Of a stretch of 64,000 nucleotides of DNA, positions 12,210-57,478 are shown one piece after another. The notes under the pieces are model-generated. The model was not told where the DNA came from. It made no database searches and worked only from the letters and a program-made list of their open reading frames with translations. Each line of letters starts with the position of its first letter. Position 1 is the first letter of the stretch. Origin of the DNA: Methanosarcina barkeri MS (GTDB lineage: Archaea > Halobacteriota > Methanosarcinia > Methanosarcinales > Methanosarcinaceae); the NCBI RefSeq assembly GCF_000970025.1, contig NZ_CP009528.1, positions 1,227,168 to 1,291,167 on the forward strand. The letters are read 5' to 3'. Made by a program: the position numbers and the translations under genes.

Positions 12210-14813
12210 ACGAATAGAAAACTAATTTTGATATTGTTAACTCTGATGCTGAGTAGTGGAGTCTGCCTGGCTGACAATTACGTCGGCGGGGTCCCTCTGG
12301 CTTCTGTCCACAGCGGAACAGTAAGTGGAGGTGTCTATTGTGACAGCTACTACGGAACAGCAGATCAGCCAATACACGACGCTAAAACTATAGACAAGAC
12401 CTTTACATTGCCGTCTAACGCCAAGGTCGAATGGGCAATGTTGCTCACAACTGTATACTGTGGACACATGCAAAATAATTATCAAGGAACAGCAACAGTA
12501 AGCTTTAACGATAAAACTCTAGGAACAGAATCCCTCAATGTTCCTTATACATACATTACTAATGGAGGTAATAACGGAAAAGCATATGTCCAGGTAAACG
12601 ACCACGTTAACAGGGTAACCAGTGACTACATGATGTATTATGATGTCACAAGTCTTGTAAAGTCCGGGGCAAACAAGGCTACCGTACATACCGAACCTAG
12701 TGACAATAAATTTGATGGCAGAATAAAACTGATAACCCTCATTGTAGCTTACGACGATGGTAGTGGAAAAAAGATCTGGTATCAGGTAAACCGTGGACAT
12801 GATCCGGATACTTATTATGTTGATGACAATGGCGAAACTTACGTTGGGAGTACGTCTTTCCAGGCAGCTTTGCCATCTGATGCGTCCTTGACAGATGCAA
12901 CGCTTACAGATGTACACATGGCAAGTACAGACGGGTCATACACTTTCAACGGAAATGCACTCACTTCAGGTACACCTCAGGGAACTTACTGTGGATCTGA
13001 TTCCTGGGATGTTACGGACGATTTTAAATCGACAGGTGCAAATACCCTGACATATGATCGGACTGACGCATTCTATAAAAATGCACTTGCTATAATGACA
13101 GCTGAATACACTACTTCATCCTCAGACAACGGCAGTGGAAACAACTCCTCAGACAATGGTAGTGATAACTCCTCAGACAACAGTGGTGGAAACAACTCCT
13201 CAGACAATGGTAGTGATAACTCCTCAGACAATGGTAGTGATAACTCCTCAGACAACAGTAGTGGAAATAACTCCTCAGACAATGGTAGTGATAACTCCTC
13301 AGACAACAGTAGTGGAAATAACTCCTCTGATACCTCTAACGGATATACTGGAGACAAGCCTCTTGAAACTTATGCCCATGACACTGTTAAAGGCGACATA
13401 ATTTATGAGTACGGAGACAGCAAGTACAGCGGCAAGGTATTTTCTGACGGCACATATACAGTACACCACAACCTGAAGCTTCCTGCAGATGCAACTGTAA
13501 AGCTTGCAAGACTCTATAATTACTGGACATGGAGTGCTACACGCACTACCGGAGTCTATCCTTCCATGAACCTGCAGTTCCAGGGGACTTCTCTGACTCC
13601 GGATGCCGAATACAGTGACCAGAAGGGATGGGGTTCTGTATATGACTACCCAAGTGGTACTTGGGCTTATGATGTAACGGATCTTATAAAAGGAAGTGGA
13701 AATTATACCACAGTAGTTACAAATGCCAATAGTGATACCGGAAACTTTGTCTGCTTTGACGGAATTGGTTTACTTGTGGTGTATGAAGATGCCACAGGAA
13801 ACGAAACCGAATACTGGATAAATGAAGGCTGTGACATGGTGAGTACGATGAGTACTTCAGGTGGTCTGACTCCTGAAGAGGCTACCGTAAAAATCCCATT
13901 CAACGGCTCTATAAATCTCAGCAATGTAGACAGTGCCAAGCTCTTGACTGTAGTCCAGTCTGGAGGACATGATGGCATTAGATTGAAATTTAATAAAATG
14001 AACATATCCGGTGTTTATGACTCGACTCCATATTCGGATCTGGATATCGATGAAGCTAGACCTGTCGGAAATTATCTCCTGGCCAATAATAACATGGCTC
14101 AGATAATTCCTCCATCTATTACAGATAATAGTGGGGACTACCTTGCTCCCTCGAGTGCAATCCTTTCTGTCAGTTATAAAGGCGGAACCAGTGACAACGG
14201 AACCAGTGACAACGGAACTAGTGACAACGGAACCAGTGACAACGGAACCAGTGACAACGGAACCAGTGACAACGGAACCAGCGACAACGGAACCAGTGAC
14301 AACGGAACCAGTGACAACGGAACCAGCGACAACGGAACCAGTGACAACGGAACCAGTGACAACGGAACCAGTGACAACGGAACCAGTGATAACGGAACAT
14401 GTGATAATGGAACCAGTGATAACGGAACATGTGATAATGGAACCAGTTCATCTGGATCTGATTCAGCTACGGTATCACTTACTGTGAACATCACACCTGC
14501 TATTTGCTTGCAGGTCACACCGAACTCAGTCAATTTCGGAACAGTAAAACCGGGAGCGTCGAGCGAGTCCGTACCTTTGACCCTTAAAAACAATGGACAC
14601 GGTAGTATAAAAGTAACGGCTGAAGTGGAAGACCAGGATGACGGCCCATTTAATACAGGGCTTATGCTTGACCAGAACAAATGTTCTGATTACAGTAAGA
14701 CAATAGCTTCAAACGCGTCCGAAACCTCGGAAGCCCAGCTTGACCTACCAGGAAATTATTCCTCTACAGGACAGTTTAATGGAAGCCTTATATTTTGGGC
14801 AGAAGCGGCCTAA
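12210..14813 (+). CDS. Large DUF3344 surface protein with Ser/Asn/Asp/Gly-rich repeat linkers (ACG in place of ATG)
   Basis: Paralogue of the 9.7-kb gene. A strong AGGAGGAAGG site (12197-12206) is followed at the right distance by ACG at 12210, where the paralogue has ATG; the next codons (NRKLILILL) are identical. A TTG at 12228 is the first canonical-type start but would shorten the signal peptide. Order: signal peptide; DUF3344 domain 1 (DNYVGGVPL to about residue 300); an SSDNGSxNN linker; a second DUF3344-like domain (ETYAHDTVKGDIIYEYGDS to about 655); a 17-unit TSDNG repeat; and a C-terminal beta domain (VTPNSVNFGTVKPG), in all 867 residues from the ACG. It is secreted and probably part of the cell envelope. 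Unlike the paralogue it has no PKD domain. The reading frame is otherwise intact. Confidence 0.8.
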   Translation, partial: TNRKLILILLTLMLSSGVCLADNYVGGVPLASVHSGTVSGGVYCDSYYGTADQPIHDAKTIDKTFTLPSNAKVEWAMLLTTVYCGHMQNNYQGTATVSFNDKTLGTESLNVPYTYITNGGNNGKAYVQVNDHVNRVTSDYMMYYDVTSLVKSGANKATVHTEPSDNKFDGRIKLITLIVAYDDGSGKKIWYQVNRGHDPDTYYVDDNGETYVGSTSFQAALPSDASLTDATLTDVHMASTDGSYTFNGNALTSGTPQGTYCGSDSWDVTDDFKSTGANTLTYDRTDAFYKNALAIMTAEYTTSSSDNGSGNNSSDNGSDNSSDNSGGNNSSDNGSDNSSDNGSDNSSDNSSGNNSSDNGSDNSSDNSSGNNSSDTSNGYTGDKPLETYAHDTVKGDIIYEYGDSKYSGKVFSDGTYTVHHNLKLPADATVKLARLYNYWTWSATRTTGVYPSMNLQFQGTSLTPDAEYSDQKGWGSVYDYPSGTWAYDVTDLIKGSGNYTTVVTNANSDTGNFVCFDGIGLLVVYEDATGNETEYWINEGCDMVSTMSTSGGLTPEEATVKIPFNGSINLSNVDSAKLLTVVQSGGHDGIRLKFNKMNISGVYDSTPYSDLDIDEARPVGNYLLANNNMAQIIPPSITDNSGDYLAPSSAILSVSYKGGTSDNGTSDNGTSDNGTSDNGTSDNGTSDNGTSDNGTSDNGTSDNGTSDNGTSDNGTSDNGTSDNGTSDNGTCDNGTSDNGTCDNGTSSSGSDSATVSLTVNITPAICLQVTPNSVNFGTVKPGASSESVPLTLKNNGHGSIKVTAEVEDQDDGPFNTGLMLDQNKCSDYSKTIASNASETSEAQLDLPGNYSSTGQFNGSLIFWAEAA
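13120..13330 (+). repeat. Low-complexity SSDNGS/SSGNN linker repeat
   Basis: Repeating units built from TCCTCAGACAAYGGTAGTG encode alternating SSDNGSDN and SSDNSSGNN blocks between the two DUF3344-like domains. They form a hydrophilic, probably flexible and N-glycosylatable linker (NxS motifs). Confidence 0.85.
14187..14441 (+). repeat. 15-bp minisatellite encoding 17 TSDNG pentapeptides
   Basis: Exactly 255 bp, 17 head-to-tail copies of ACCAGTGACAACGGA. Variants are confined mostly to the 3' end (TGT for AGT in two units, GAT/AAT for GAC/AAC), so the 5' units are the youngest. It acts as a linker between the second DUF3344-like domain and the C-terminal beta domain. Because the unit length is three times five, copy-number change keeps the frame. 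Confidence 0.95.
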
Positions 14814-15170: not shown

Positions 15171-15417
15171 CTTAGAGCGTGTCTTAATATTAGATTGATT
15201 CTGTAATAGTGATAGTAATTACTCATTTGTACTGAAAAATGGTGGCATCAAAATTTTAAATAGTTAAAGTATAAATTTTAACTATAATGTCTGATGTATT
15301 TGATTTCATACATAGAGTGAGTAAGCCTAATCTAATAAATTTACAATCTGAATTAAAAATCAACAACAATCACTATCCAAATGTAGAAATAGTTTGAATT
15401 TTAAGACAGCCTCTTAG
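15171..15417. mobile_element. MITE-like element 1 (about 247 bp)
   Basis: Left end CTTAGAGCGTGTCTTAATATT; right end, read on the other strand, CTAAGAGGCTGTCTTAAAATT. These imperfect terminal inverted repeats match those of the element at 16718-16991. The interior is AT-rich, has no reading frame and ends 44 bp from the peptidase gene. No clear target-site duplication was seen. Confidence 0.6.
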
Positions 15418-15460
15418 ATTTCTCAATTCTGGACATATTCAAGCATATTGGTACCTGGAT

Positions 15461-16717: not shown

Positions 16718-16991
16718 CTCTAAGAGACTGTCTTAAAATTCAAATCATTTATACAATTAGATAAAAATCATTTATACAATTAGATAAAAATCATTTATAC
16801 AATTAGATAATATGCAACGTTCCATTTAAATTCATATTACGCACTCGATGTATAAAATCAAGCACAATAAAAGTCATGGTTTAAACTTTCGTTTTGGATA
16901 TTAACAGTTTAACACTCCGTTTATCAATTTAAATGCATAAGTCCTATCTCAATTATAGAACCAGATTTAATTTTAAGACATGCTCTTAGAG
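16718..16991. mobile_element. MITE-like element 2 (274 bp)
   Basis: Terminal inverted repeats CTCTAAGAGACTGTCTTAAA on the left and CTCTAAGAGCATGTCTTAAA on the right, read inward, with more matching A/T beyond. The interior has a threefold 23-bp repeat (core AATCATTTATACAATTAGAT, 16741-16810) and no coding capacity. The same end sequence occurs on element 1. It is probably mobilised by a transposase encoded elsewhere. Confidence 0.65.
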
Positions 16992-20315: not shown

Positions 20316-21719
20316 ATGGCAACCGAATACGCTTTGCGTATGGGAGACGGTAAACGTGTCTACCTTACCAAAGAAAAAATAATGGCGGAGATTGAGGCCG
20401 GAACTGCAAATGCTGCCGACCTTGGCGAGATCCCTACCTTGAGCGCCAATGAAATGGACAAGCTTGCAGAGATCCTCATGATGCCCGGCAAGACTGTTAG
20501 TGTCGAACAGGGTATGGAAATTCCTGTGACACACGACATCGGTACCATCAGGCTTGACGGTGACCAGGGCAACAGCGGTGTTGGTATTCCTTCCAGCCGT
20601 TTAGTTGGCTGCATGACGCACGAGCGTGCTTTTGGTGCTGACACAATGGAACTCGGGCACATTGATTACAGCTTCAAGCCTGTCAAACCTGTTGTATCAA
20701 ACGAGTGCCAGGCAATGGAAGTCTGCCAGCAGAACATGGTTATTCCGTTGTTTTACGGCGCAATGCCAAACATGGGATTGTATTATACTCCTGATGGACC
20801 TTTCGAGAACCCTGGCGACCTCATGAAGGCTTTCAAGATTCAGGAAGCCTGGGAATCAATGGAACATGCTGCAGAACACCTGACAAGAGACACTGTCTGG
20901 GTTATGCAGAAGCTCTTTGCCTCCGGTGCCGATGGGGTCAACTTCGACACAACCGGTGCAGCAGGCGACGGTGACATGTATGGTACACTCCATGCGATTG
21001 AAGCCCTCAGAAAAGAGTTCCCTGATATGTACATTGAAGCAGGTATGGCTGGGGAGTGTGTCCTTGGTATGCACGGAAACCTTCAGTATGACGGCGTTAC
21101 CCTTGCCGGATTATGGCCTCATCAGCAGGCCCCGCTTGTTGCAAAAGCCGGAGCAAATGTATTTGGACCAGTATGCAACACCAATACCAGTAAGACCTCA
21201 GCCTGGAACCTTGCTCGTGCAGTTACTTTCATCAAGGCTGCCGTAGGAGCTTCTCCAATCCCCTGTCATGTAAATATGGGTATGGGAGTTGGCGGAATTC
21301 CCATGCTCGAAACACCTCCAATTGATGCGGTTACCAGAGCAAGCAAGGCAATGGTCGAAATCGCAGGCGTCGACGGCATATAGATCGGAGTCGGCGACCC
21401 AATGGGTATGCCGATTTCCCACATAATGGCTTCAGGTATGACTGGTATGAGAGCTGCAGGAGACCTTGTTGCAAGAATGGAGTTCTCAAAGAATATGCGC
21501 ATAGGTGAGGCAAAAGAGTACGTTGCAAAGAAACTCGGGGTCGACAAGATGGACCTTGTAGACGAGCACGTTATGCGCGAACTGCGTGAAGAACTTGATA
21601 TTGGTATTATAACGTCAGTACCAGGCGCTGCAAAGGGTATTGCTGCAAAGATGAACATTGAAAAGTTGCTCGGTATTAAGATTAATTCCTGCAATCTCTT
21701 CAGAAAGCAGATAGCGTAA
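20316..21719 (+). CDS. mtbB: Dimethylamine:corrinoid methyltransferase MtbB (pyrrolysine at codon 356)
   Basis: Transfers a methyl group from dimethylamine to the corrinoid of MtbC. ATG at 20316 follows GGAGG (20305-20309). An in-frame TAG at 21381-21383 (codon 356) lies after EIAGVDGI; the same frame continues [18 protein letters not shown] to TAA at 21717, giving 467 residues, the known size of MtbB, with pyrrolysine at the known position. Pyrrolysine is thought to bind and orient the amine in the active site. Reading the TAG as a stop would lose a quarter of the conserved protein. The tRNA-Pyl and pyl genes are not in this window. Immediately 3' of the TAG, a nested inverted repeat (21384-21388 with 21411-21415; inner 21397-21400 with 21404-21407) could form a stem-loop. 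Confidence 0.97.
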
Positions 21720-23796: not shown

Positions 23797-25240
23797 AGAA
23801 AATATGTAACCTTAATAATCCTGAAGCCTCATACTCATTTTTTTATTATCAAAAGACAAAAAGCCTTGAAACTAAAGACATTTTCGCTATCTCAATTCTA
23901 CGAGTTCATCCCAAAGCCAACTTTTAGTCACGAGGCTAAATAATGTAACTGCTCATGATAAATGAGATTTTTGTTGCAACAATTACAGGCGTGACTTTTA
24001 TTCTCAATCGGTATATTTTTAAAACTGTTTTCATGATCCAAAGTTTTGAGAATTGCAAATTATAGCTCAAAAGAAACTGTTTTGAGTTTTAGGATTAGCT
24101 CTACAAGAAAATAACCATTCTGGCCGAAAATTGAGTAAGGGGTAAAAAATAGAAAAAGTGAGGAAAAATAGAAAAAGTGAGGAAAATAAGTACGAAGAAT
24201 ATAACTTGACTATATCACGTTACAAGGTAAAAAGTCATCATTAGACCTCATATCCCAAGTATATTGTTTGTAGTGAAATTAATAACTGCAATTGGACTAA
24301 CTGTCTAATCTGACATATTACCTGCAATGAAATAACCTTTGCAACTTATAAGTTATTGTACTTTGATTGGTTATCTTGATATTGAAAAATCAAAAAGTCC
24401 AATTGGACATCTGCGTAGTTTATTCTGAGATAGGGCTATAGTTGAGATAGTAATAGTGAAAAAATTCAGTTACGGAGGTATCCAGAAGCTATGGCATTCC
24501 CACATACCAAAGCTCTGGTACATTTTTAATGCATTTGCTGGAATTCGGAGTAAGGAAAATTTCGGTTAAACCTGAAATGTTCCTTTTTAGTTCTCCAGAG
24601 ATACCGTGAGTTTCAGCCAGATTTTCACATAGATCCGGCATGAATCCAGCAGTACTCTTTAATCTCTTCTCAAAAGGATGCAATAATTTCTATCGTTTTT
24701 TAATGTTTGTACTTTTAATCTGTTTTTAATGCGCCATTTTTAGTTCATTTTTTATGTCGTTTTTTATTTTACAGTTTTTATTATTGGTGGTTGTTTTATT
24801 CCGTTTTTCTTGTCATTTTTAATAATTTTAGCGGTCACTTTATCCTATCTTTCTTGCCATTTTTGTTTATCCTGTGACCATATATCCCGTTTTTAACGCT
24901 AGTTCTAATTTATTACTTGCCCTTCCAGAAGTATTCATTGTTCTTTCAGGCAATTATTTTTTGTTGGATTTGTTCTTGTTAACTGGCAAGTGATTTATCT
25001 ATGGTTTCAATAATATATAGCCCGATTCGCATTGCTCTTGCAAAAGTTTCGGGTAGGAGAAAGAGCTACATGCAGGTTCTAAAGTAAAGTGATATTTTAA
25101 TGCCGTTAAATTTTTCAACCTAGTCTATCAAAGCTCAGGAAGCCTTTTAGAATCTTTTTAAAAATCAAAATTTTTTTAAATATAACTCGTTTGTAACATA
25201 ATCTTTTAATAAAAGTACTCTCTATATATATAAGTTAACA
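23797..25240. other. Long noncoding spacer before the Msr regulator
   Basis: 1.4 kb without a convincing gene. It contains a dispersed repeat copy (24343-24430) and a T-rich stretch (24690-24900) with repeated TTTTTAAT/TTTTTAT words. A short minus-strand frame at 24489-24683 is not recognisable. A TATA-like TTTAAATATAACTC at about 25175-25188 may serve the gene at 25241. Confidence 0.5.
24343..24430. repeat. Dispersed repeat, related to the segment inside the SET gene
   Basis: About 88 bp (AACTTATAAGTT, then TTTGATTGG, CTTGATA, GAAAAATCAAAA, GTTTATTCTG) align with 52154-52240 at the 3' end of the SET-domain gene, in the same orientation relative to the + strand. Confidence 0.7.
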
Positions 25241-40114: not shown

Positions 40115-41503
40115 TCAGACCTTCTGGTCTTCAGGCTTTTTGTACCCGGCTTTTTTTGCTTTCATTGCCTGTATCTTTTCGTGTATCTTCCTGCGATAAA
40201 CGAATGCTCCACCTGCAATGATGAGCAGTCCGATGTATGGCAGGTACGAACTAATTCCAGAGCTGCGACCTGGGCCTCCCGGACCTGCTGAAGTCATATT
40301 TCCTGAGGATGTAGTTTCGATATTTACTTCTTTAGTAACAGTTTCCCTTTCCCCTTTTGCATCCGTATACTCAATCTGGACCTTCAGTGGATTGGAGGAA
40401 CTCATAGAGTTTGAGCTTGCGCCGTTAGCACTATCTTGTGAAGAATCTGGAGGTGTTTCTGGGCTATTTTCGGTTGTATTTCCTCCTGCACCACCCTGTG
40501 AATTCGAAACATCAAATGAAGCAATTGTGTAATCTCCTTTCTCCAGATTTCCTACAATTGTTGACGAACTTCCTGAAACTTTGTATCCATCTTGATCTGG
40601 AATAGATACTTTCACAGCATACGCTATGTTATTACCCACATTTGCAACTGAAAGGGAAGTCTCTCCAGCGCTACTTTCCGAGAATGAAACATCGAAATCC
40701 GTTGTTCCTCCTACAAAAAGTCCTGCTGTGGTCTGGATATTTTTAGAGTTAGAGTTAGCATCTTCATACGAAAGATTCACATTCAAGGTATAAAGCCCAG
40801 GATCGGCATTCACATCGGCCATTACCGAGTAAGAGACGGTTACTGATTGACCTGCTTCCAGATTCTTGATGTGTTTTGTGTTATCAGAGTATACAGGCAA
40901 AACCACGCCTTTAGGATCAGTCCAGGAGAAAACCAGGTTTTTCAAGGGAGAAGTCCCTGTATTTGTAACAATAAACTCAAGAGGCTCTTCTTTAGCTATG
41001 TCGATATCAGCCTTACTTACGGTCACAACCTGAGCATATTCTTTACCCTGAACCTCTAATTGAATTGTTTGTTTAGTGGTAATCGTGTTTGACGAGGATC
41101 CGCTCTTATAAGTAGTGACTATGTCAAGATCATACGTGCCTTCAGATGCATTGGAATCGGTCATGAGTTTGAATTTAAGAACTCCAGCATCATCCTCGTC
41201 TTGTCGTGCATTTAGATAAGAGATACTCTTTTCAAGGTCTTCTCCGGAAATTTTACTGAAAGGGTATTCCGGATTGAGTGTAACCTTTATATCCTTGAGG
41301 TCATCGTTTCCTATGTTCTGCACGCTGAGGGTAAGTTCAACAGGTTCCCCAGGCCGGGCAGTGTCAGGGTTTTGATTAGTTACATTTACCTGCACAGCGG
41401 CAGAGTTTATATTGCCGTTTGATGCTCCCAGTGCTGTGCCTGCCCCCAGGCATAGGAACGTTGAAAGCAGTAGTAAAAATGTTAACAAAGAGATTTTTTT
41501 CAT
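40115..41503 (-). CDS. COG1361-type surface protein with membrane anchor, copy A
   Basis: A 462-aa protein: signal peptide (KKISLLTFLLLLSTFLCLGA), then two or three CARDB-like beta domains (NQNPDTARPGEPVELTLSVQ; EPLEFIVTNTGTSPLKNLVF; SLSVANVGNNIAYAVKVSIP), a Ser/Asn/Gly-rich stretch, and a C-terminal helix (SSYLPYIGLLIIAGGAFVYR) with a basic tail. The bulk is extracellular. Its invariable place between ATPase and permease suggests it is a dedicated outer subunit of the ABC system, perhaps in place of the bacterial MacA adaptor; this is an inference. Confidence 0.85.
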   Translation of the reverse strand: MKKISLLTFLLLLSTFLCLGAGTALGASNGNINSAAVQVNVTNQNPDTARPGEPVELTLSVQNIGNDDLKDIKVTLNPEYPFSKISGEDLEKSISYLNARQDEDDAGVLKFKLMTDSNASEGTYDLDIVTTYKSGSSSNTITTKQTIQLEVQGKEYAQVVTVSKADIDIAKEEPLEFIVTNTGTSPLKNLVFSWTDPKGVVLPVYSDNTKHIKNLEAGQSVTVSYSVMADVNADPGLYTLNVNLSYEDANSNSKNIQTTAGLFVGGTTDFDVSFSESSAGETSLSVANVGNNIAYAVKVSIPDQDGYKVSGSSSTIVGNLEKGDYTIASFDVSNSQGGAGGNTTENSPETPPDSSQDSANGASSNSMSSSNPLKVQIEYTDAKGERETVTKEVNIETTSSGNMTSAGPGGPGRSSGISSYLPYIGLLIIAGGAFVYRRKIHEKIQAMKAKKAGYKKPEDQKV

Positions 41504-41512
41504 TTTAATTCC

Positions 41513-42691
41513 TCACTCCAGATCGGGTTCATTTTTCGTACTTGGTTCGTTTTTCGTACTTGGCTCATTTTCTATACTTTGTTCATTTTCTATACTTTGT
41601 TCATTTTCTATACTTTGTTCATTTTCTATACTTTGTTCATTTTCTATACTTTGTTCATTTTCTATACTTTGTTCATTTTCTATACTTTGTTCATTTTCTA
41701 TACTTTGTTCATTTTCTATACTTTGTTCATTTTCTATACTTTGTTCATTTTCTATACTTTGTTCATTTTCTATACTTGGTTCGTTTTTCGTACCTGGTTT
41801 GTTTTTCGGACGTGTCTCGATTTTTTCAATCTCACCGTCACGGATGTACACGACTCTTGTTGCATATCTTACAAGTTCAACGTCATGGGTAACAATAATT
41901 ATCGTCTTACCTTCTCTTGCATGCAGCCCATCCAGAAAATCCAGAATATAATATCCAGTCTTGGTATCCAGGTTTCCTGTAGGCTCATCTGCCAGGATTA
42001 TGGGCGGGTTTACAGCTAGGGAACGGGCTATTGCAACTCTCTGCCTTTGTCCGCCTGAAAGCTGGGACGGAAGGTTCTGTTTCTTGTTTGAGAGCCCGAC
42101 AATGTCAAGCAGATATGAGGCTTTTTGTCGGGCTATTTTTCGATCATCTTCCTGAAATTCCATAGGTAAAAGCACGTTTTCTTCTGTACTGAGTGTGGAG
42201 AGGAGGTTAAAGCTCTGGAATATGAAACCAATCATCTGTCCTCGGATAATGGCAAGTTCGGATTCGTCAAGTTCTGAGATGTCTTTAGAATTCAGGCAAA
42301 CCGTGCCTTTTGAAGGTATATCCAGGCAGCCCAGCAGGTTCATCATCGTACTCTTTCCGCTTCCGCTGGGCCCGAGAATGATCAGAAATTCCCCTTCGTA
42401 AATTTCCAGGTTTATTCCTTTGAGAGCTGCAAACTCAACTTCCCCCATTTGATAGATTTTCCAGACATTGGTCAGTTTGATAAGAGGTTCATTTTTATTT
42501 TGAGATATCCTTACCGCGTTGGAACTATTAGTAGCACCGTTTCCGGAATTTAAGTACGGGTTGATTTTAAGATCCTCCTCTGAATCACTCTCGGATGGAC
42601 CAGTGAAGCTCGCTGCTTCTTCAAGCGAGTTTATAATCTTTGAGGGATTCAATACCGTTTTAAGAGAATCTATTATTCCAGTGAGTGTCAT
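41513..42691 (-). CDS. LolD/MacB-type ABC ATPase with expanded C-terminal repeat, copy A
   Basis: A 392-aa protein. An N-terminal extension of about 70 residues is followed by a standard ATPase: Walker [11 protein letters not shown]-loop FIFQSFNLL, signature [12 protein letters not shown], Walker [13 protein letters not shown] and H-loop IVTHD. The ATPase ends at GEIEKIETR; after it come about 100 residues of ENEQSI-type repeats. The core powers the permease at 38845. Copy B (46784) has the same core, but its tail holds only about three degenerate units. ATG at 42691 follows GAGG. Confidence 0.92.
41561..41778 (-). repeat. 18-bp minisatellite encoding ENEQSI in the ATPase tail
   Basis: Eleven identical-length copies of the 18-bp unit (TTCATTTTCTATACTTTG on the + strand), with no visible base changes, flanked by variant units ([12 protein letters not shown]). 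Each copy adds six residues (ENEQSI) to the C terminus. Confidence 0.97.
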
Positions 42692-51632: not shown

Positions 51633-52134
51633 TTTGGACTCCTTTTTGTAACTTCAGGAGAAGTTTTGGCTTTGAATTAACCCTGGATTAAATTTCACAG
51701 CTATTACTGTGATTCCTAAGTAGGCTCATCACACTTGATTTTTTAATAGATCCGAAGACCACGGATTTTTCCGTGGATAAGGAATTGATTTTGAAATCGA
51801 AGCGCTAGCTTATAGGTCAGTGTATAGGGTCAACATATAGGTCAGTGTATAGGATCAACATATAGGTCAATTTGTAGGTCAACTTATAGGTCAACTTATA
51901 GGTCAACTTATAGGTCAACTCATAAGTTAGCTTTTTATTATAAAGTGGCCGAAAATATAAACTTCGCGCCTGTCATATACAGAATCAAAAAAGCTTAATA
52001 AAGGTTAAAAGAGAAAAATACTTCTTCTTTCAGGAACATTCAATGACTAGACTCAATAGTCATTCTTTTCAGCATATTTCAAGATCTTCCTGACCTGCAA
52101 GATCGAACCAGACTGGGTTTTCGTCTTAGTGCCC
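51633..52134. other. Spacer with 13-bp repeats
   Basis: Tandem copies of TAGGTCAACTTA and of a related TATAGGTCAGTG, period about 13-14 bp, lie at 51816-51925. The segment 52040-52134 holds a short protein-like frame (minus strand, LQVRKILKYAEKN) that may be a gene relic next to the dispersed repeat. Confidence 0.6.
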
Positions 52135-52620
52135 TCAACGAAAGAGCCCATGAAACTTATAATTCCTTGTAACTTTGATTGGCCAACCTTGATAGTGAAA
52201 ATCAAAATGCCCAATCGGGAATGCGCAGAGTTTATTCTGTGACTTCTGTGACGAGGTCTTAGGGTCACAGTGATAATTTATTGTGATTTCTTCGTCTTCC
52301 TGAATATCTCTTATGCAGACGTATTTTAAAAGGCTGTTATCGAAGTCTTTATAGTACCTTGCATTCGGGTTGTACGAGTGGTTATAACGAGAACCATAGC
52401 CCAGCGCCACAGCTGCATCTTTTGAATCAGGATCCACGGCGAAATAATAATTATAGAGCTTGGTAAGCTCAAGTGAGTCTATCTCTTCAGAGGGTAAGAC
52501 TATGAAAGGACAGGTTTCTATTACCTCGCCTTTTCTAAAGTTCCTCTGTGCAAACACGCCCCTACCTTTTCCAGGTGATTCTTTTACACTTATCGACAAT
52601 ATATGGTCACATCCCCGCAA
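52135..52620 (-). CDS. SET-domain protein with repeat-derived C terminus
   Basis: A 161-aa protein with a compact SET domain: ESPGKGRGVFAQRNFRKGEV at the start, the cofactor motif SRYNHSYNPNARYY, and EDEEITINYH. SET proteins transfer methyl from S-adenosylmethionine to lysine. After NYHCDPKTSS the last 35 residues (about 52135-52240) are encoded by a dispersed repeat also found at 24343-24430, so the original C terminus (often an aromatic lid or Cys motif) has been replaced. The start may be TTG at 52620; no strong ribosome site is seen. Activity is doubtful. Confidence 0.75.
   Translation of the reverse strand: MRGCDHILSISVKESPGKGRGVFAQRNFRKGEVIETCPFIVLPSEEIDSLELTKLYNYYFAVDPDSKDAAVALGYGSRYNHSYNPNARYYKDFDNSLLKYVCIRDIQEDEEITINYHCDPKTSSQKSQNKLCAFPIGHFDFHYQGWPIKVTRNYKFHGLFR
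52154..52240. repeat. Dispersed repeat copy inside the 3' end of the SET gene
   Basis: Aligned with 24343-24430: AACTTATAA, TTTGATTGG, CTTGATA, AATCAAAA, GCCCAATC/GTCCAATT, GTTTATTCTG in the same order and spacing, with small indels. Confidence 0.7.
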
Positions 52621-54869: not shown

Positions 54870-57478
54870 TCGTTCACCAACTTTTCAAATTCAGCTTTAA
54901 ATTCTTCTTCTCCCATTTTATCTCTCAACTCTAAGATAAGTTTAGAAGCCAGTTGACTATATGGGGACTTAAGAGATTCGAAAATTGAAAAAGCTTTTAT
55001 GTAAGCGTTGAGAGCAAAAACATATTCTCCCTTTGCTTCATAAATCACTCCTAACTGCCCCATTGTGCTTGCAATTCCGCTTTTGTCCCCCAGCTCTTTT
55101 GCAATTTTCAGTGACTTGTTATACTTTTTCACTGCTTCTTCGTAATTGCCCTGTTGCTGATGAATCATTCCGAGCTGGTGCAGTGTTTGTGCAATTCCAC
55201 TTTTATCTCCCAGCTCTTCTTTCATTTTCAGTGACTTGTTATACTTTTTCACTGCTTCTTCGTAATTGCCCTGCTGCTGATAAATCATTCCTATCTGGTG
55301 TAGTGTTTGTGCAATTCCGCTTTTGTTTCCTAGCTCTTCTTTAATTTTCAGTGACTGGTTATATTTTCCCATTGCTTCTTCGTAGTTGCCCTGATTCTGA
55401 TAAATCATTCCTATCTGGTGTAGTGTTTGTGCAATTTCGTTTTTATCCCCAAGCTCTTCTTTAATTTTCAGTGACTGGTTATATTTTCCCATTGCTTCTT
55501 CGTAGTTGCCCTGATTCTGATAAATCATTCCAATCTGGTGCAGTGTTATTGCAGTTCCGCGTTTGTCTCCAAGTTCTTCTTTCATTTTCAGTGACTGGTT
55601 ATACTTTTCCAAGGCTTCTTTATAGTTGCTCTGAAGGAAATGAACACTTCCAAGTTGATGTAGTGTTTGTGCAATTCCGCTTTTGTCCCCCAGCTCTTCT
55701 TTCATTTTCAGTGACTGGTTATACTTTTTCACTGCTTCTTCGTAGTTGCCCTGATCATAATAAATATTTCCAAGCTGGTGCAGTGTTATTGCAATTCTGC
55801 GTTTGTCCCCCAGCTCTTCTTTCAGTTTTAGAGACTTGTTATACTTTTTCACTGCTTCTTCATAGTTGCCCTGCTGATGATTAATAACTCCAAGCTGGTG
55901 TAGTGTTGTTGCAATTTCGCTTTTGTCTTCCATATCTTCAAATATTTTCAGAGCCTGCTTATACTTTTTCACTGCTTCTCCGTAATTTCCCTGAAGTAAA
56001 TGAACATTTCCAAGCTGATGCAGTGCTTGTGCAGTTCCGCGTTTGTCTCCAAGTTCTTCTGCAATTTTCAGTGACTGGTTATACTTATTCACTGCCTCTT
56101 TGTAGTTGCCCTGCTCCTGATGAATAATTCCAACTTCATGGAGTATAACTGCAACCCCCTTATTATTCCCCATTTCTTCATATTTATTTTTAATTTTGTT
56201 ACATATTTTTAATGCTGTTGTTAAGTCTCCAAGGCGATGGTAGATAGTTGCAAGGGTGTACTCGGCGTTTGTTTTCGTTTCTCCTAATGTCGTGTTAATA
56301 GAATCATTTAACAGATCCATTGCAAGTTTAATATGACCCCAGAGGATCAGATGATCGACTGTACTTTCTACAATTCGGGTTGCACTTTTGTAGTCTTCTG
56401 CTTGGAAGTAATAGTCGCGTGCTTTTAAATGATCCCATAGATTTCTATTCTGGGCAACTAGATTTTCGTAATATCTGGCAGCCCTGACGAGTAGCGTTTT
56501 TTTATCCAGTCCATCTTCTTTCAGTTTTTTGAGTGCGAAATCTTTTACAATTGTATGCTCTGAGTAAACACTCTTGTCATACTCCTGTTCTTTTGAAACC
56601 AGACCCCATTGGAGGAGTTTTTGTAGAGGTTCGCCGACAGCAGGACATTCATCTTTTTCATCTCCGACAATCCATGATAATGCTTCGATGGGAATGGCTT
56701 CTTCGAATATTGAAGCGCTGAGGAGCAATTTTATGGCGTCTTCGTCCAGTTTGGAAAATGACTTGTCTAGAAGGGTGAACTCAATAAGCTCTTTTTTCAA
56801 GGGTGACAGATCCAGCAGTAAATCATCTACTCTCTGAACAGCGGCATGTTTTGCAAACTGGCCTATTGTCCAGGGGTGGCCGCCTATAACATCATATATT
56901 TCCTTTTTCTTCTGAATTCCCAGATCTGCCAGTTCAGTAAAATTGTTCATAAGCCAGTTTGTCTGAGGGAAATGGAGTTCGGGAAGGGAAATGTGTTCGA
57001 TTCCGGAAGCAAGCCTGCCATCAAGAGGATCGAAATCATAGCGGGTTGTTATGAGGAATTTTGTGTTTCTGGTTGTATTGTTAAGGAGATGCTGGATGAA
57101 CGCTTTAAGTTCAAGGTTTTCTATGCCGTTTCTTTCTTCATTCAGACAATCTTCAAAGTTATCGAAAATGACCAGAAATCTTATCTGGTTTAGTATGTTT
57201 ACCAGCAAAGAAGTTTTAACTTCAAGGGGAACCTGCTGGTTCAGAATCTGGTTCAATTCTGGCCTTCCTTTCATCAGCAAAAAACTATTGAACTTGTTCA
57301 GGATATCTTCCGGCCTGGTTGTGGGAGTAAATTTGATCCCCAGAGTGCCTTCGAAGTAATAGCCCATTTTCAACGCGAATCGAGTTGCAAGTACGGTTTT
57401 TCCAATTCCTCCAAAGCCGTGAATAATTGCAGCCCGTTTTACATCTGACTTGAAACCTTTTTCAAGAAGTCTGAGTTC
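54866..57478 (-). CDS. STAND-type NTPase with TPR array (C-terminal part of a split CHAT-STAND-TPR gene)
   Basis: The frame opens at the frameshift (57479) and reads LLEKGFKSDVKRAAIIHG, Walker A GFGGIGKT (57395-57418), Walker B FLVIFDNFED, then FLITTRYDFDPL and LSGxHPWTIGQFAKHAA-type NB-ARC/NACHT features and a winged-helix region. Eleven TPR units follow (about residues 360-820), nine of 40 aa with consensus GNYEEAVKKYNQSLKMKEEL. A start inside this frame (TTG at 57373) would lack the P-loop, so the piece is not a natural independent gene. Such proteins bind a trigger with the repeats, oligomerise with ATP, and activate the N-terminal effector, here the CHAT protease encoded upstream. Confidence 0.85.
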   Translation of the reverse strand, partial: ELRLLEKGFKSDVKRAAIIHGFGGIGKTVLATRFALKMGYYFEGTLGIKFTPTTRPEDILNKFNSFLLMKGRPELNQILNQQVPLEVKTSLLVNILNQIRFLVIFDNFEDCLNEERNGIENLELKAFIQHLLNNTTRNTKFLITTRYDFDPLDGRLASGIEHISLPELHFPQTNWLMNNFTELADLGIQKKKEIYDVIGGHPWTIGQFAKHAAVQRVDDLLLDLSPLKKELIEFTLLDKSFSKLDEDAIKLLLSASIFEEAIPIEALSWIVGDEKDECPAVGEPLQKLLQWGLVSKEQEYDKSVYSEHTIVKDFALKKLKEDGLDKKTLLVRAARYYENLVAQNRNLWDHLKARDYYFQAEDYKSATRIVESTVDHLILWGHIKLAMDLLNDSINTTLGETKTNAEYTLATIYHRLGDLTTALKICNKIKNKYEEMGNNKGVAVILHEVGIIHQEQGNYKEAVNKYNQSLKIAEELGDKRGTAQALHQLGNVHLLQGNYGEAVKKYKQALKIFEDMEDKSEIATTLHQLGVINHQQGNYEEAVKKYNKSLKLKEELGDKRRIAITLHQLGNIYYDQGNYEEAVKKYNQSLKMKEELGDKSGIAQTLHQLGSVHFLQSNYKEALEKYNQSLKMKEELGDKRGTAITLHQIGMIYQNQGNYEEAMGKYNQSLKIKEELGDKNEIAQTLHQIGMIYQNQGNYEEAMGKYNQSLKIKEELGNKSGIAQTLHQIGMIYQQQGNYEEAVKKYNKSLKMKEELGDKSGIAQTLHQLGMIHQQQGNYEEAVKKYNKSLKIAKELGDKSGIASTMGQLGVIYEAKGEYVFALNAYIKAFSIFESLKSPYSQLASKLILELRDKMGEEEFKAEFEKLVNE
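55050..56150 (-). repeat. 120-bp tandem repeats encoding 40-aa TPR units
   Basis: About nine consecutive units with a 120-bp period. Two neighbouring units (about 55351-55530) are almost identical at the DNA level, which shows recent duplication or gene conversion in the sensor part. Confidence 0.9.

What the first reader, a model, noticed from the sequence alone, without database searches (positions are those of the whole stretch)
52135..52275. Dispersed repeat supplies the C terminus of a SET protein
The last 35 codons coincide with a repeat that also occurs in noncoding DNA at 24343-24430. The repeat has replaced the native end, creating a chimeric protein, an example of exaptation or inactivation by a noncoding element.
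Basis: partly seen in the sequence, partly recalled or inferred. Interest (0 to 1): 0.5.

Follow-up and report, generated by a model that had tools for sequence, protein, structure and literature searches.

The report
Small transposon interrupts archaeal SET gene
A 120-base non-coding jumping element landed near the end of a probable protein-methylating enzyme gene in a common ancestor of two Methanosarcina barkeri lineages, leaving the enzyme's normal tail out of frame; it is a clear example of an ordinary process, with no sign that the new tail does anything useful.

Summary
A 120-bp repeat at 24318-24437 recurs, enlarged to 130 bp, at 52129-52258 and supplies the last 40 codons and stop of a SET-domain ORF (52135-52620, minus). 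The repeat is MITE-like: 120-121 bp as a rule, imperfect ~20-bp inverted ends, and a 3-bp duplicated target (mostly TTA/TAA), identical on both sides in 34 of 41 copies against 19.5 in shuffles. There are 13 strong copies in the genome; a profile matches 25 of 30 Methanosarcina genomes at E 0.01, 18 of 30 at E 1e-6. The native tail was not replaced: it lies out of frame just beyond the element (52069-52125). All 20 orthologues without the element have PVWF shortly after the SET domain. A sister genome, M. barkeri Wiesmoor, shares the insertion but has a different tail, because later indels put the two in different frames. Since the insertion the SET core has evolved with dN/dS 0.37: less constrained than most intact pairs, yet probably not neutral. 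Best reading: an old MITE insertion gave a SET protein with a foreign tail, probably impaired and slowly decaying; exaptation is unsupported. Ordinary, but a clean case.

The parts
52135..52620 (-). SET-domain ORF as it stands (161 codons from TTG at 52620; a start at TTG 52599, giving 154 aa, lies one codon after the place of the orthologues' ATG); last 40 codons and the stop lie in the element
52273..52566 (-). SET domain match (PF00856, residues 19-116 of 161)
52129..52258 (+). MITE-like element inserted in the SET gene (130 bp: the usual 120 plus a 9-bp tandem duplication and 1 extra base)
52126..52128 (.). flanking triplet TTA, distal side (gene sense: TAA after the element)
52259..52261 (.). 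flanking triplet TTA, proximal side (gene sense: the TAA of CCTAAG)
52235..52252 (+). 9-bp tandem duplication (TTCTGTGAC twice), seen in this copy only among the 13 aligned
52069..52125 (-). displaced native C-terminal tail (DENPVWFDLAGQEDLEIC-stop, read by hand from the DNA), without a stop of its own before its end but out of frame with the SET ORF
24318..24437 (+). second copy of the element in the window, intergenic, flanked by ATA 24315-24317 and ATA 24438-24440

Best explanation
The repeat is a MITE-like non-autonomous transposable element of about 120 bp that inserts at TWA with a 3-bp duplication. In the common ancestor of the window genome (M. barkeri) and G004 (M. barkeri Wiesmoor), one copy inserted at a TAA in the codons just after the SET domain of a small SET-domain gene. 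It separated the SET domain from the conserved PVWF tail. Translation now runs into the element: in the window genome it stops inside it after 40 codons, in G004 it crosses the whole element and continues in a wrong frame of the old tail. Shown: insertion, empty sites, matching triplets, shared position in both carriers, displaced tail. Inferred: the insertion weakened the enzyme and the gene is decaying slowly (about 0.6); the element's peptide has no selected function; mobilisation was by an IS5-type transposase acting in trans. The confidence below is for the insertion itself.
For: Uninterrupted site in 20 of 20 non-carrier orthologues, and in both carriers the native tail DNA lies beyond the element. 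Identical flanking triplets in 34 of 41 copies, shuffle mean 19.5, maximum 29 in 10,000. A second empty site: the copy at G000:C2:866218 begins at the stop codon after GAC where 5 of 7 aligned relatives read GAC-TAA (the far side matched by eye). Inverted ends: mean 11.5 of 20 matches against 5.3 in shuffles, 10 or more in 24 of 30 copies. 13 strong copies in the own genome; the SET copy is the only one of 13 shown here to lie inside a conserved gene. Carriers are sisters on the SET-core tree, with moderate support (87/80). Tails differ between carriers. For the decay part: core dN/dS of the carrier pair 0.373 (bootstrap 0.18-0.81), where the median of 52 non-carrier pairs with dS 0.05-0.5 is 0.14; 5 replacements at otherwise invariant sites in the window gene, the most of 22 rows. 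In G004 the displaced tail has a stop in its old frame (third frame).
Against: No autonomous partner with these ends was found in what was examined. The distal junction in both carriers is one base shorter than a clean duplication of the relatives' sequence would give, so the duplication at this site rests on the family's rule. The SET copy's own inverted ends match at only 9 of 20. 7 of 41 copies have unequal triplets. On decay: the three highest of the 52 non-carrier pairs reach dN/dS 0.32-0.37 too, both carriers keep an open SET frame, and neutral simulations give 0.373 or less in 1, 10, 23 and 51 of 1000 at kappa 1, 2, 4 and 8, so some constraint probably persists.
Confidence: 0.9

Rival explanations
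1. About the outcome, not the insertion: the chimeric SET protein is a working enzyme; the tail after the SET domain is dispensable, the insertion was tolerated, and the element's peptide is neutral ballast.
For: SET frame open in both carriers since their split; carrier-pair dN/dS 0.373, undercut or equalled in 10 and 23 of 1000 neutral simulations at kappa 2 and 4 (observed ts/tv 19:13). GRG, NHSY-PN and the tyrosine of ITINY are kept in the window gene; G004 keeps GRG, NHSY-PN and ITINY too.
Against: PVWF invariant in 20 of 20 orthologues suggests it matters; V28F, W51V, I60V, L67R and N106H in the window gene and F49C, Y64C in G004 hit otherwise invariant sites.
Confidence: 0.35
2. Exaptation: the element's peptide has become a selected new C-terminal module.
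For: The element is open end to end in the SET frame in G004's copy although most copies carry a stop there (4 of 30 open); 120 bp plus 3 is a multiple of three.
Against: The two carriers end differently (40 codons with an internal stop versus read-through into the wrong frame); the window copy has a 1-base and a 9-base insertion; element divergence between carriers is 15 of 120 plus 10 gap columns, no less than the SET core's 32 of 318.
Confidence: 0.06
3. The repeat is a dispersed structured RNA or regulatory element, not a transposable element.
For: The alignment and 4 of 4 single copies folded give long imperfect hairpins, and most own-genome copies lie between open segments.
Against: Fixed length with matching target triplets and empty sites; the hairpin follows from the inverted ends; no Rfam match to the element in the window or in the 5 loci tested; 3 of 33 predicted pairs with any double change.
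Confidence: 0.04

Closest known systems
Archaeal MITEs of Methanosarcina linked to IS5-family elements (Kamoun et al. 2013, PMC3852290; one section with its Table 4, and passages, read)
   Same: Short, multi-copy, inverted ends, lacking recognisable ORFs; the table lists an M. acetivorans MITE linked to ISMma12 (IS5) of 140 bp, IR 16, DR 3, 24 copies.
   Different: Here 120-121 bp; sequences of that table were not available for comparison, so identity with that family is untested.
IS5-type insertion sequences of Methanosarcina (e.g. loci L177, L182, L184, L207, fetched with the DUF4096 and DDE_Tnp_1 models)
   Same: Inverted ends next to equal TTA or TAA triplets, found in about 15 of 53 loci; the script asked for equal TWA triplets, so this is not independent proof of their target.
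   Different: Their ends (GAGCCTATCCGAAAA, GAGGCTGTCTTAAAA and like) resemble this element's only loosely, by eye; no copy with its ends and a transposase was found.
Rickettsia palindromic elements (as summarised in PMC10969869, passages seen)
   Same: Small palindromic repeat that ends up inside a protein-coding gene.
   Different: RPEs are often inserted in genes, in frame, and keep an ORF; here 1 of 13 own-genome copies is shown to be in a conserved gene and the frame is usually closed.
Go1-SET of Methanosarcina mazei (as described in PMC3980110, passages seen)
   Same: Small archaeal SET-domain protein of the same genus; Go1-SET methylates the chromatin protein MC1-alpha in vitro.
   Different: Orthology with the window gene was not tested (no Go1-SET sequence was in hand; a second, distant SET gene shows in two relatives, G029 and G003).

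Membership tests
MITE (prokaryotic) | short, repeated, no transposase | tested here: met
   120-121 bp as a rule; 13 strong copies in own genome; few copies have any frame open end to end (0, 4, 2 and 1, 1, 0 of 30 in the six frames)
MITE (prokaryotic) | terminal inverted repeats | tested here: met
   mean 11.5 of 20 matches vs 5.3 shuffled, 24 of 30 copies at 10 or more; the SET copy itself 9 of 20; closer to perfect in the related copy L108
MITE (prokaryotic) | target-site duplication | tested here: met
   34 of 41 copies identical triplets, none of 10,000 shuffles reached this; empty sites
MITE (prokaryotic) | autonomous partner sharing the ends | tested here: inconclusive
   none seen among end-pattern hits and loci examined or in 53 transposase loci, which are only a part of the transposases present
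IS5-family mobilised element | 3-bp TNA target (subgroup rule recalled) | tested here: met
   TTA or TAA in most copies
IS5-family mobilised element | ends like those of IS5-type elements | tested here: inconclusive
   GTGCCCG / GGCCCCG compared by eye with GAGCCTA / GAGGCTG ends; no statistic
IS5-family mobilised element | transposase acting on it | not testable with these tools
   needs a transposition assay
SET-domain methyltransferase | Pfam SET match and conserved motifs | tested here: met
   PF00856 E 2.2e-16; GRG, NHSY-PN and ITINY present; motif roles recalled and from passages of PMC3980110
SET-domain methyltransferase, this ortholog group | PVWF tail | tested here: not met
   present in 20 of 20 non-carriers, out of frame in both carriers
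SET-domain methyltransferase | enzymatic activity | not testable with these tools
   needs an assay
Rickettsia-palindromic-element-like coding insert | copies commonly in genes and in frame | tested here: not met
   1 of 13 own-genome copies shown inside a conserved gene; two more overlap 76- and 89-codon open segments without a Pfam match; 4 of 30 copies open in the SET frame

The most novel reading that the evidence does not exclude
The insertion at first added an element-encoded peptide of about 41 residues in frame between the SET domain and its PVWF tail (120 + 3 bases, open frame in the G004 copy), and the carriers later settled on different element-derived tails under continuing selection on the SET core: an archaeal case of a MITE serving as raw material for a protein's C terminus.
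Probability: 0.08. Interest if true: 0.5.

Novelty: new member of a known kind. Interest (0 to 1): 0.25.

Why it matters
It gives a sequence-complete example (empty site, matching triplets, displaced native tail, two carriers, age bracketed by their split) of a MITE altering an archaeal protein. It also warns that a protein predicted for this M. barkeri SET gene carries a transposon-derived tail. The MITE family, found in three genera of the family by the profile search, may help to trace insertion histories in these methanogens. The biology itself is ordinary.

Tried and rejected
Structure prediction of an intact orthologue and of the chimera: mean pLDDT 33.1 and 38.6, too poor to use; no fold search was made. 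So I cannot say from structure what the PVWF tail does.

Structured-RNA reading: Rfam gave nothing for the element; the alignment fold gave -5.57 kcal/mol with 3 of 33 pairs changed on both sides in any sequence. Rejected in favour of inverted ends.

Search for the parent IS: end patterns with up to 3 mismatches over 30 genomes (their hits were compared by eye with the profile hits, not all flanks were fetched), the G018 contig-end variant over 111 family genomes, TIR pairs in the loci fetched, IS5-type transposase loci (53 loci out of longer, capped lists). None seen had these ends with a transposase. The two G018 contigs break about 100 bases into the element, so a longer element there cannot be excluded.

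Do other copies lie in genes? Two of the 13 own copies overlap open segments of 76 and 89 codons (L025, L020); neither has a Pfam match up to E 0.1. Others only abut open segments or lie apart from them. Conservation of those segments was not tested, except beside L021.

Literature: searches. None of the listings or passages seen describes this SET interruption or this repeat; that rests on those searches of an open-access library only.

Rows dropped: of 69 model matches, 28 end-to-end ones were used for the triplet count with the 13 own copies; partial, duplicate and reverse-strand matches were left out. Of the 41, L136/L081 have identical flanks (orthologous) and the two SET copies are orthologous, so 39 are independent at most. 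Searches used 30 copies (13 own plus 17 of the closest), leaving out the divergent subfamilies. The dN/dS comparison kept non-carrier pairs with dS between 0.05 and 0.5 only. The script ended with an error after printing all its counts.

Full report
What is there. The window lies on the 4,533,209-bp contig of a genome whose second contig matches the plasmid of Methanosarcina barkeri 227 at 100% over 83% of a 6-kb query, so the organism is M. barkeri or very near it. By the same test G004 is M. barkeri Wiesmoor and G029 is M. vacuolata Z-761. ORF 52135-52620 (minus) has a SET domain. Its 3' end overlaps a repeat also found at 24.3 kb.

The repeat. Own-genome searches with the two copies and with a profile gave 13 strong copies. 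Aligned with flanks they share a sharply bounded unit that starts GTGCCCGCAACGAAATAAC and ends GTTTATTCTGTGACGGGGCC or variants, bounded on both sides by a triplet, mostly TTA or TAA. The unit is 120 bp in 11 of the 13; one is 116 and the SET copy 130. With 28 further end-to-end copies from the genus, the two flanking triplets agree in 34 of 41, where shuffled pairing gives 19.5 on average and never more than 29 in 10,000. The ends are imperfect inverted repeats, closer to perfect in related copies. A sequence profile matches 25 of 30 genus genomes at E 0.01, some of them only weakly, and 23 of 111 family genomes, in 3 of 14 genera, at E 1e-6, 18 of these in the genus. These are the features of a MITE with a 3-bp TWA target.

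The insertion. Twenty-two of 30 Methanosarcina genomes have the SET gene (18 of 23 near-complete ones), so it seems dispensable in the genus. In 20 of these 22 the SET domain is followed within a few residues by a short tail with invariant PVWF. In the window genome and in G004 the element sits between. Beyond it, at 52125-52069, the window still encodes DENPVWFDLAGQEDLEIC-stop, in a different frame. So the element was inserted; it did not replace the end. The two carriers are sisters on the SET-core tree (support 87/80, moderate) and have the element at the same place and in the same orientation, so the insertion most likely predates their split. In both, the distal junction is one base shorter than a clean duplication of the relatives' sequence would give, and the old tail is out of frame; whether that difference arose before, at or after insertion is unknown.

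Two carriers, two tails. The window copy has gained a 9-bp tandem duplication and one further base and stops inside the element after 40 codons. The G004 copy is 120 bp, open through its length, and reads on into the wrong frame of the old tail, 178 aa in all. In its old frame the G004 tail now has a stop (third frame). A selected new C terminus should be shared; this one is not.

Selection on the SET part. If the insertion predates the split, all divergence between the carriers is later than it. Over 106 codons, dN/dS for this pair is 0.373 (dS 0.213, dN 0.080), bootstrap 0.18-0.81; the median of 52 non-carrier pairs with dS 0.05-0.5 is 0.14, but the three highest of them reach 0.32-0.37. Neutral simulations give 0.373 or less in 1, 10, 23 and 51 of 1000 at kappa 1, 2, 4 and 8 (observed ts/tv 19:13). 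The window gene has 5 and G004's has 2 replacements at sites invariant in all other rows; the rest have 0-3. So constraint is probably relaxed but not gone. I favour a weakened, slowly decaying gene over a fully working one, at about 3 to 2, and give exaptation about 6%.

Comparison with what is known. Kamoun et al. 2013 (PMC3852290; one section and passages read) list Methanosarcina MITEs, among them one linked to ISMma12 (IS5) with 140 bp, IR 16 and DR 3. Transposase loci with inverted ends next to equal TTA or TAA triplets are present in the genus (where equal triplets were a search condition). The element is thus of a known kind; identity with a named family is untested. A review (PMC10969869; passages read) notes that in-frame fusions of intragenic MITEs with genes are not unusual and describes Rickettsia palindromic elements. 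Go1-SET of M. mazei methylates MC1-alpha in vitro according to PMC3980110 (passages read); I did not test whether it is this gene's orthologue.

Noticed in passing
L021 (G000:C2:866218-866344) and relatives L156-L162: Another copy of the element begins right at the stop codon of a 470-codon open segment: 5 of 7 aligned relatives read GAC-TAA there, the window genome GAC-TGA then the element, so a stop is kept and the product is probably unchanged. TWA targeting may make stop codons natural landing sites.
   Followed up: partly
window 15374-15418, 16718-16763, 16951-16991: Inverted repeats that look by eye like ends of IS5-type elements (GAGGCTGTCTTAAAATT type, compare).
   Followed up: no
window 21381-21480 (+): PYLIS_2 (RF02509, pyrrolysine insertion sequence of mtbB) match.
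   Followed up: no
window 14123-14492, 41473-41859, 54950-56209: Tandem arrays with periods of 15, 18 and 120 bp.
   Followed up: no
window, about 51815-51930: Array of TATAGGTCAA-like repeats downstream of the SET gene; similar runs follow the orthologues in G029 and G020.
   Followed up: no
L130 (G007:C1:3425490-3426235): A copy of the element is itself interrupted by a stretch of about 600 bp that looks like a small IS200/IS605-type element (judged by eye, no family search).
   Followed up: no
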